NCBI RefSeq assembly: GCF_003149085.1
Contig: NZ_QGDT01000001.1
Span: 434,001-498,000 of the forward strand
DNA from: Dyadobacter jejuensis
GTDB lineage: Bacteria > Bacteroidota > Bacteroidia > Cytophagales > Spirosomataceae
Length of the DNA stretch: 64,000 nt
Reading direction: 5' to 3'
The notes below the pieces were generated by a model. That model had not been told where the DNA came from and searched no databases. It worked only from the letters and a program-made list of their open reading frames with translations. Made by a program: the position numbers and the translations under genes. The stretch's first letter is position 1. Each line of letters opens with the position of its first letter. Shown here piece by piece: positions 25,490 through 26,610 of this stretch.

Positions 25490-25773
25490 GGTTTGAAGGC
25501 TAAGATAAATGGAAAATATAGTTTTTGTTGTGTTGGATATGTTTTTTTACCTACCAAAATGTACGGTGGGGGTAGGCGCATACCCAGCATGCTGTTGGCT
25601 AGGGCCTTAAGCCTTATCGATCCTCTGGTAATCGTAAGTACAGGTTCGCCCTAAAACCCTATTTATGACCAGTTTTCATTCGTTTCGAGTTGGGAGCTGA
25701 CAAATGGGATAATTCTAAGCAAATTTTAATAAATTAATTCAATTTACGGTTTATTTTTTTCTAAAATTTTGAC

Positions 25774-25781
25774 TACATTTG
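25774..25781 (+). promoter_or_regulatory. -7 promoter box of the his operon leader
   Basis: TACATTTG is an exact TAnnTTTG match. The ATG of the candidate leader peptide (25786) lies only 4 bases after the box, so the RNA would start at or next to this codon and the leader peptide would be translated from a leaderless or nearly leaderless end. The -33 region is AT-rich with only a TTTA-like element. Confidence 0.65.
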
Positions 25782-25785
25782 CAAC

Positions 25786-25851
25786 ATGTTAAAAACTGAA
25801 ACATGTCCTCAATTACATCAAAGTCATCAGGCTTTTGGGCGTCTTGGATGA
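25786..25851 (+). CDS. Candidate his leader peptide (21 residues, two His codons)
   Basis: The ORF reads MLKTETCPQL then HQSHQAFGRLG and stops with TGA at 25849. The His codons are at 25816-25818 and 25825-25827, directly before the antiterminator arm at 25830-25839, where a stalled ribosome would matter. Only two of 21 codons are His, fewer than in enterobacterial his leaders, so this is a proposal based on position and the paired hairpins. There is no Shine-Dalgarno sequence, which is usual in Bacteroidota. Confidence 0.5.
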   Translation: MLKTETCPQLHQSHQAFGRLG

Positions 25852-25931
25852 TATGTTTTTGCAAGTAGTGTTGTAATAAGGTTGAATACATAGTATCCCA
25901 GAAGCCCGATTCTTATGAATCGGGCTTTTTT
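25830..25931 (+). promoter_or_regulatory. Transcription attenuator of the his operon (antiterminator/terminator switch)
   Basis: Terminator: AAGCCCGATTC (25902-25912), TTAT loop, GAATCGGGCTT (25917-25927), T-run to 25931. Competing antiterminator: GGCTTTTGGG (25830-25839) pairs with CCCAGAAGCC (25897-25906) over 10 bp with one G-U. The right antiterminator arm overlaps the left terminator arm, so the two folds exclude each other. The left arm lies within the leader ORF just after its His codons. The terminator sits 92 bases before the hisH ATG. Confidence 0.7.
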
Positions 25932-26022
25932 CGTTTTTATTCAAATTCGAAGGGGTTTGTTCCCCGGGTTCACTATTTTTCCCTTACTTTTATTAGTTGA
26001 ATATAAATTACTACGCCTAATC

Positions 26023-26610
26023 ATGAAGACCGTTATTATCAAATACAACGCAGGGAACGTACAATCGGTAATGTACGCACTGGACAGGTTGGGGGTTAGT
26101 TATGTCTATTCCGATGAGGAGGCCGAGATTCGTTCGGCCGATCGGGTGATATTCCCCGGTGTGGGAGAGGCCAGTACGGCCATGGCCTATCTTAAAGAGA
26201 AAAAATTGGATCTGCTCATCCCCGATCTGAAGCAGCCAGTCTTTGGTACTTGTATAGGAATGCAGCTGATGTGCAAGCATTCGGAAGAGAACGATACGAC
26301 CTGCATGGGGATATTTGATGTGGACGTGTATAAGTTTGCGGCCATTCCAGGGCTCAAAGTACCGCATATGGGATGGAATAATATCAAGGCTTATCACTCA
26401 CACCTCACCGACGGGCTACCCGATAACGCCTATGTCTATTTTGTGCATAGCTATGCTGCGCCGGTTTGCGCACAGACGGTAGCAACCTGCGACTATATCG
26501 TTCCATTTAGTGCAATGCTCAAAAAGGATAACTTCTATGCAGCACAGTTCCATTGCGAAATAAGTGGAGGTGTTGGTCAGAAAATAATGGAAAACTTTTT
26601 AAAGGAATAA
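26023..26610 (+). CDS. hisH: Imidazole glycerol phosphate synthase glutaminase subunit HisH
   Basis: 195 residues from the ATG at 26023 (MKTVIIKYNAGNVQSV). The frame extends upstream into the attenuator terminator, so the earlier ATG at 25915 is not used. The glutaminase triad is present: C77 (FGTCIGMQL), H177 and E179 (QFHCEISGG). The last motif departs from the usual FHPEKSG. HisH releases ammonia from glutamine for HisF in the sixth step of histidine synthesis. It is the first structural gene of the operon, 18 bases before hisA. Confidence 0.94.
   Translation: MKTVIIKYNAGNVQSVMYALDRLGVSYVYSDEEAEIRSADRVIFPGVGEASTAMAYLKEKKLDLLIPDLKQPVFGTCIGMQLMCKHSEENDTTCMGIFDVDVYKFAAIPGLKVPHMGWNNIKAYHSHLTDGLPDNAYVYFVHSYAAPVCAQTVATCDYIVPFSAMLKKDNFYAAQFHCEISGGVGQKIMENFLKE

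What the first reader, a model, noticed from the sequence alone, without database searches (positions are those of the whole stretch)
25774..25931. Candidate ribosome-mediated attenuator of the his operon with a leaderless leader peptide
Between an exact -7 box (25774-25781) and hisH (26023) lies a 21-codon ORF (25786-25851) with His codons at 25816 and 25825. Directly after these is an antiterminator arm (25830-25839) that can pair over 10 bp with 25897-25906. That partner overlaps the left arm of a perfect 11-bp terminator (25902-25927 plus T-run). The two folds exclude each other, as in classical amino-acid attenuation. Unusual points are the low number of His codons, the HQSHQ spacing, the lack of a Shine-Dalgarno, and the -7 box lying only 4 bases before the leader ATG. 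The operon starts at hisH rather than hisG. Classical attenuation is known from enteric bacteria; its presence here is inferred from the sequence.
Basis: partly seen in the sequence, partly recalled or inferred. Interest (0 to 1): 0.78.

Follow-up and report, generated by a model that had tools for sequence, protein, structure and literature searches.

The report
Leaderless histidine attenuator before hisH
A short RNA stretch ahead of a group of histidine-making genes looks like a switch that senses histidine by having a ribosome read a tiny histidine-rich peptide, apparently starting at the very first base of the message, and related bacteria carry the same switch.

Summary
Upstream of hisHAFIE in this Dyadobacter-like genome lie a TAnnTTTG box, a 21-codon ORF starting 4 nt after it, and a strong terminator. 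Of 80 related hisH loci, 70 have a short ORF with His codons behind the same box, starting exactly 4 nt after it in 66. Published F. johnsoniae promoters put the TSS 5 nt after that G (PMC6847099), so the AUG should be the 5' end: a leaderless leader peptide. His is 21.7% of leader residues, 2.3% of the operon's. The window copy, with two His codons, is a weak member. Against: no two-sided compensation within the clades counted for the helices proposed here; at equilibrium the finished terminator always wins, so the switch must be kinetic. New: a 43-nt stretch invariant in 26 distinct Dyadobacter leaders that pairing only partly explains; the attenuator sits at hisH while hisS-hisG-hisD-hisC lies elsewhere without one; His leaders with a terminator, mostly not leaderless, precede hisG in 20 of 30 class-wide loci. 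Precedents exist for each part: a new variant of a known kind.

The parts
25715..25730 (+). Conserved upstream element CTAAGCAAATTTTAAT, 70-72 nt before the leader ATG; perhaps an UP-type element or regulator site (function inferred, untested)
   Evidence: exact match to CTAANSAAATTTTAAT in 23 of 30 named Dyadobacter loci, plus the window = 24 of 31; fixed distance; only exact match in the window
25774..25781 (+). -7 box TACATTTG (Bacteroidota sigma-A type, TAnnTTTG)
   Evidence: consensus and TSS distance from PMC6847099 section 14
25786..25786 (+). Predicted transcription start, identical with the A of the leader AUG
   Evidence: Box G at 25781 plus 5; the base before ATG is a pyrimidine in 71 of 71 leaders. 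Inferred, not mapped
25786..25851 (+). Leader peptide ORF MLKTETCPQLHQSHQAFGRLG*
   Evidence: homologous ORFs in 70 of 80 loci
25816..25818 (+). Regulatory His codon 1 (CAT)
25825..25827 (+). Regulatory His codon 2 (CAT)
25798..25810 (+). Segment 1, 5' arm of the anti-antiterminator hairpin
   Evidence: fold; 96.6% of cells paired in 26 Dyadobacter leaders (12-bp version). In the window itself weak, z = -1.3
25847..25859 (+). Segment 2 as partner of segment 1 (contains the complement of CAU codons)
25835..25856 (+). Antiterminator 5' arm (segment 2)
25888..25909 (+). Antiterminator 3' arm (segment 3), reaching into the terminator 5' arm
25859..25876 (+). Small hairpin at the tip of the antiterminator (25859-25864/25871-25876)
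   Evidence: all six pairs invariant
25857..25899 (+). 43-nt block identical in 26 distinct Dyadobacter leaders; only partly explained by pairing
   Evidence: a 28-mer of it found once in 30 of 30 named Dyadobacter loci
25900..25929 (+). Intrinsic terminator hairpin, T-run to 25931
26023..26610 (+). hisH, first structural gene
   Evidence: TIGR01855
26629..27351 (+). hisA
   Evidence: TIGR00007
27421..28191 (+). hisF
   Evidence: TIGR00735
28237..28875 (+). hisIE
   Evidence: NF002747

Best explanation
It is a ribosome-mediated transcription attenuator of hisHAFIE whose leader peptide is translated from a 5'-terminal AUG. RNA polymerase starts at or next to the A of 25786 (inferred). A ribosome loads on the terminal AUG without Shine-Dalgarno or 5' UTR (inferred). 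With little charged tRNA-His it stalls at the CAU codons, covering segment 1. Segment 2 is then free to pair with segment 3 before the 3' arm of the terminator has been made, the terminator is pre-empted, and hisHAFIE is transcribed (predicted from folds). With enough His the ribosome runs to UGA 25849-25851, covers segment 2, and the terminator forms. With no ribosome, 1:2 plus the terminator is the predicted fold, so the operon stays off. Shown here: conservation of box, spacing, ORF, His codons and terminator, and pairability of the three helices. Inferred: TSS, leaderless initiation, kinetics, histidine response.
For: 70 of 80 hisH loci have a short ORF behind TAnnTTTG, and every one of the 70 has at least one His codon although the scan did not ask for any. 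66 of 70 have exactly 4 nt between box and ATG, 3 have 3, 1 has 5. His is 257 of 1187 leader residues (21.7%) against 2.3% in the window operon. All 71 leaders, window included, have an 11-13 bp terminator. Terminator-to-hisH distance varies from 4 to 127 nt, which speaks for transcription rather than translation control. With the assumed footprint, antiterminator energy is at least 5 kcal/mol better for a ribosome at the first His codon than at the stop in 71 of 71, and the terminator 5' arm is more sequestered in 71 of 71 (first His) and 65 of 71 (last His) (partly a length effect). Masking scan in the window: -29.1 kcal/mol with RNA free from 25834, -16.5 from 25840, -8.9 from 25849. 2:3 and 1:2 keep 95.4% and 96.6% of cells paired in 26 leaders, slid controls at most 50.8% and 67.3%. 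TSS rule: PMC6847099 section 14. The base before ATG is a pyrimidine in 71 of 71, and A at -3 is found in only 17 of 71.
Against: No double-sided compensatory change in the helices counted within any of the three clades; shuffling the 3' letters reached the observed covariation score in 459-500 of 500. Swap test: for 2:3 in the Dyadobacter group no native pair (0 of 28) beat every partner from other groups, and in the Flectobacillus group only 7 of 11 beat the median. Native antiterminators are below all 20 spacer shuffles in only 33 of 71 (window: yes). Folded with the complete terminator, the terminator forms at every masking position, so the switch needs co-transcriptional kinetics. 1:2 in the window is weak (z = -1.3, 18 of 200 shuffles as stable). 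Only two, non-adjacent His codons in the window. 10 of 80 loci lack the leader. Leaderless mRNAs are rare in measured Bacteroidota (5.5% in F. psychrophilum; about 3.7% under 10 nt in B. thetaiotaomicron). No transcript or expression data.
Confidence: 0.85

Rival explanations
1. Attenuator as above, but the leader peptide is not leaderless: an unseen upstream promoter gives a normal 5' UTR, and the box-ATG spacing is a by-product.
For: Most Bacteroidota transcripts are leadered. A fixed upstream element lies 70-72 nt before the ATG. His leaders at hisG in the class mostly sit 7-20 nt behind the box.
Against: Spacing of exactly 4 in 66 of 70 loci; invariant pyrimidine before ATG; no A preference at -3. 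The upstream element is missing in 7 of 31 Dyadobacter leaders and in the other groups.
Confidence: 0.12
2. Riboswitch, T-box or protein-controlled terminator; the ORF is incidental.
For: The invariant 43-nt block in Dyadobacter looks like a binding site.
Against: No Rfam family reaches its threshold in the window. The ORF and His codons persist in the Spirosoma and Flectobacillus groups, where the block is absent. In-frame 3-nt gap in the ORF. His enrichment.
Confidence: 0.04
3. A decaying, non-functional relic in this species: two His codons remain after CAT became CCT at codon 9.
For: Window and D. tibetensis have 2 His where most relatives have 3-5; weaker 1:2.
Against: Promoter, terminator, antiterminator and block are intact; the window 2:3 native energy (-25.3) is better than the group mean (-23.6).
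Confidence: 0.08
4. A plain constitutive terminator/promoter region belonging to the upstream gene.
For: Terminators between genes are common.
Against: The terminator lies on the his side of the conserved promoter, between the leader ORF and hisH; nothing else explains the His-rich ORFs.
Confidence: 0.01

Closest known systems
his operon attenuator of enteric bacteria (hisL; Rfam His leader; details recalled)
   Same: His-codon leader peptide, 1:2 / 2:3 / 3:4 helices, intrinsic terminator before the first his gene
   Different: No Rfam match; leader peptide apparently leaderless and with few His codons; sits before hisH, not hisG; Bacteroidota promoter
Leader-peptide attenuation reported upstream of amino acid operons in Flavobacterium psychrophilum, with a conserved 5' element at hisG (PMC9723704, section 19 and passages read)
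   Same: Same phylum; likely same principle; hisG leaders with His runs and terminators found here in 20 of 30 class-wide loci
   Different: Different gene (hisG); leaders there mostly 7-20 nt behind the box, so with a short 5' UTR; that paper gives no mechanism in the sections I read
Leaderless poly-Cys ORF attenuators of mycobacteria (Canestrari 2020; seen only as cited in PMC9031893)
   Same: Leaderless short ORF sensing one amino acid
   Different: Other phylum and amino acid; described as controlling translation/operonic expression rather than by a conserved terminator
ilvBNC attenuator of Corynebacterium glutamicum (PMC11857589, passages)
   Same: TSS one nucleotide from the leader start codon; three-hairpin model; no ribosome binding site
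   Different: Branched-chain amino acids; actinobacterium; tested by mutation there, not here

Membership tests
Classical ribosome-mediated amino acid attenuation | Short leader ORF with regulatory codons for the operon's amino acid | tested here: met
   70 of 80 loci; 21.7% His; window has 2 His codons
Classical ribosome-mediated amino acid attenuation | Intrinsic terminator between leader ORF and first structural gene | tested here: met
   71 of 71 leaders; window
Classical ribosome-mediated amino acid attenuation | Antiterminator excluding the terminator | tested here: met
   Pairability 95.4% of cells; overlap 25904-25909; but no double compensation and equilibrium favours the finished terminator
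Classical ribosome-mediated amino acid attenuation | Anti-antiterminator (1:2) freed or covered by ribosome position | tested here: inconclusive
   96.6% of cells in 26 Dyadobacter leaders; weak in the window; swap test mixed
Classical ribosome-mediated amino acid attenuation | Readthrough rises on starvation for that amino acid and depends on leader translation | not testable with these tools
   Needs expression experiments
Leaderless-ORF attenuators (mycobacterial / corynebacterial type) | Transcript 5' end at the leader AUG | not testable with these tools
   Predicted from box spacing 4 in 66 of 70 and F. johnsoniae TSS rule
Rfam His leader family | Covariance model match at gathering score | tested here: not met
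   0 gathering matches in the window; at E <= 10 the 21 listed matches in 25700-26030 do not include a His leader
T-box / riboswitch | Rfam model match at gathering score | tested here: not met
   0 gathering matches in the window; none at the leaders of six relatives scanned

The most novel reading that the evidence does not exclude
The 43-nt block that never changes in Dyadobacter is a second functional element built into the attenuator: the terminated leader RNA, or the block in the nascent RNA, binds a protein or pairs with another RNA. One candidate is the separate hisS-hisG-hisD-hisC operon: in this genome the block pairs with the hisS-hisG gap at -19.9 kcal/mol, against a mean of -9.0 over that 9.5-kb stretch. 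That site is not seen in the 13 other Dyadobacter hisG loci tested. So a leaderless cis attenuator might also be a trans regulator that ties the two split his operons together.
Probability: 0.12. Interest if true: 0.78.

Novelty: new variant of a known kind. Interest (0 to 1): 0.52.

Why it matters
Bacteroidota lack Shine-Dalgarno signals and leaderless mRNAs are thought rare there. A family-wide attenuator whose AUG is pinned to the promoter would give a natural, quantitative assay for leaderless initiation in this phylum. It also shows how attenuation can stay with one half of a split pathway (hisHAFIE) while hisG stands elsewhere without it, and it supplies a clear set of homologues from which an RNA family model could be built. 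The invariant 43-nt block is an open question that the set makes testable.

Tried and rejected
Second copies of the element: in 25 of 25 same-genus genomes searched there is one strong match each (E <= 5.2e-30).

Leaderless leader ORFs at other amino acid genes: scans of up to 1500 nt upstream of trpE, ilvD and pheA domain matches gave no convincing leaderless attenuator in Dyadobacter. A trp leader with WWW and 15-nt spacing appears in one genome of another family (L166). thrA loci were fetched but not scanned.

His leader at hisG in Dyadobacter: 0 of 20 genus loci. Viral contigs: the invariant motif has no exact match. Trans pairing of the block with hisG upstream regions: best in the own genome, not conserved in the 13 others tested. 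A second mini-ORF behind the leader stop was considered by eye and set aside: the bases are invariant, with no synonymous changes, and the ATG follows from complementarity to CAU codons. RNAalifold on the mixed Spirosoma-group alignment found only the terminator; narrower alignments were used instead.

Rows left out before pair counts: A1 has 26 distinct Dyadobacter leaders (L013 and L020, other genera, left out); A2 has 17 of 27 Spirosoma-group leaders; A3 has 7 of 11 Flectobacillus-group leaders. The 10 loci without a leader are not. Genome-wide leaderless genes: in the loci held, spacing 4 before ORFs of 100 aa or more has 7 cases against 0-2 at the other spacings from 0 to 15, but five look like one Larkinella gene, and larger peaks lie at 23 and 32 nt. 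So this is weak support only.

Searches scanned unnamed loci without turning the minus-strand ones and are superseded.

Full report
What is there. The window lies in a 5.76-Mb, 72-contig genome. Its hisH is 89% identical to that of Dyadobacter tibetensis. Upstream of hisH (26023) are, in order: TACATTTG (25774-25781), ATG at 25786, a 21-codon ORF ending at 25851 with CAT codons at 25816 and 25825, and a 12-13 bp terminator at 25900-25929. The operon is hisH-hisA-hisF-hisIE. hisS-hisG-hisD-hisC is on another contig of the same assembly.

Conservation. One scan of genome contigs with HisH kept the best 80 of 358 loci. An ORF of at most 45 codons behind TAnnTTTG was found in 70 of 80, and all 70 contain His, which the scan did not require. 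Examples: Rudanella MFSTKTVHHHHHSICP, Flectobacillus MNSTITHHHHHLIS, Dyadobacter koreensis MLRAETYHHFHQNHLVSGRLG. His is 257 of 1187 residues after Met in 71 leaders, against 2.3% of codons in the window operon; 33 of 71 have four His codons, 7 have two (the window among them), 1 has one. The ten without a leader are L028, L036, L043, L061, L064, L068-L071 and L076; in several the stretch before hisH is replaced by inverted repeats or deleted. All 71 leaders have a terminator of 11-13 bp.

Leaderless start. ATG follows the box by exactly 4 nt in 66 of 70 relatives, by 3 in three and by 5 in one. In F. johnsoniae the G of the box is at -5 and most probable promoters have 4 or 5 nt between box and TSS (PMC6847099 section 14), and in F. 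psychrophilum the box is at -12 to -5 (PMC9723704 passages). The A of the AUG is therefore the expected +1. The base before it is a pyrimidine in 71 of 71, as expected of a -1/+1 pyrimidine-purine start (recalled rule); A at -3 is present in only 17 of 71. Leaderless mRNAs are rare in this phylum: 5.5% in F. psychrophilum, 3.7% of B. thetaiotaomicron 5' UTRs under 10 nt (PMC7366714 passages), 13% or less in F. johnsoniae with leaders of 10 nt or less. No 5' end has been mapped here.

Structure. With RNA made up to the terminator loop, the best fold from 25828 pairs 25835-25856 with 25888-25909: 19 bp with three mismatches, plus a small tip hairpin. It takes 25904-25909 from the terminator 5' arm. 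Without ribosome the full leader folds as a 1:2 hairpin (25798-25810/25847-25859) plus the terminator. The Spirosoma group (17 of its 27 leaders aligned) has GCAGAAC just after the stop against GTTCTGC in the terminator arm, 96.2% paired. The Flectobacillus group (7 of 11) has 98.4% for 2:3 and 94.3% for 1:2. A swap test between groups (66 distinct leaders): 1:2 native means -16.8, -16.3 and -13.9 against -10.0, -12.9 and -11.2 with partners from other groups. 2:3 native means -23.6, -22.2 and -17.9 against -20.1, -15.0 and -17.7. Native beats every foreign partner for 1:2 in 17 of 28, 11 of 27 and 3 of 11, and for 2:3 in 0 of 28, 21 of 27 and 1 of 11. This is strong for the Spirosoma group, moderate or weak elsewhere.

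Ribosome positions. Assuming a 3' edge 12 nt past the first base of the A-site codon (recalled), the window antiterminator keeps -29.3 kcal/mol at the first His codon, -23.2 at the second and -5.3 at the stop (30 C). The same order between first His and stop holds in 71 of 71 leaders, partly because more free RNA always folds better. Against spacer shuffles, native is better than all 20 in 33 of 71, the window included. When the whole terminator is present it forms at every masking position in the window, so antitermination has to win in time, not in energy.

Genome-level setting. In the class, 68 of 149 sampled genomes gave a hisG match. Of the 30 best loci, 20 have a His-rich short ORF followed by a strong terminator (-16 kcal/mol or better), with the box mostly 7-20 nt before the ATG where a box was found. 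None of 20 Dyadobacter hisG loci has one. So His attenuation is widespread in Bacteroidia at hisG, usually with a short 5' UTR, and in the hisH loci examined here it sits at hisH with no 5' UTR. Whether one arose from the other was not tested.

The invariant block. 25857-25899 is identical at 43 of 43 columns in 26 distinct Dyadobacter leaders. In the same species hisH is 76% identical, its longest invariant run is 6 nt and its second codon positions average 93%. A 28-mer of it occurs once in each of the 30 named Dyadobacter loci. Arundinibacter and Rhabdobacter keep 29 of 43 columns; the Spirosoma and Flectobacillus groups do not have it. Dual pairing explains both ends but not the unpaired middle (25877-25887). 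Pairing with the hisS-hisG gap is strong in this genome (-19.9 kcal/mol) but not in 13 relatives. I leave it unexplained.

Literature. I searched the open library seven times and saw no report of a his attenuator in Dyadobacter or Spirosoma in those listings; most subscription papers are not held. A survey of his genes in the superphylum mentions attenuation once, for enterics (PMC8305728 passages). Leader-peptide attenuation and a conserved 5' element at hisG were reported for F. psychrophilum (PMC9723704 section 19). Leaderless attenuator ORFs are known from mycobacteria (cited in PMC9031893) and nearly so for ilvL of C. glutamicum (PMC11857589 passages). Vitreschak and co-workers' 2004 survey of attenuators is recalled, not read. 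Hence a new variant of a known kind.

Noticed in passing
window 25715-25730: CTAANSAAATTTTAAT element at a fixed 70-72 nt before the leader ATG in 24 of 31 Dyadobacter leaders; perhaps an UP element or a regulator site.
   Followed up: partly
L028, L064, L068, L071 just upstream of hisH: The leader is gone and inverted repeats stand there instead; in L028 and L064 a coding stretch that looks by eye like a REP-type transposase lies next to them.
   Followed up: no
L036 upstream of hisH: A deletion seems to have fused the -7 box region directly to the terminator, removing the leader ORF.
   Followed up: no
G013:C2:4391444-4391922 (near L084): Five extra partial copies of the hisH 3' end lie downstream of hisH.
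   Followed up: no
L005 5595-5639 (-): Acido-Lenti-1 RNA match (43.4 bits, over threshold) just after hisH.
   Followed up: no
L166, reverse strand, ORF at 1273: Possible trp leader peptide MNIQLHNMAWWWRIPETVV upstream of trpE in a genome of another Cytophagales family, 15 nt behind a TAnnTTTG box.
   Followed up: no
L038 and L075: Records titled Flavobacterium and Cellulophaga carry leaders like those of Rudanella and Flectobacillus; the record names may be wrong.
   Followed up: no
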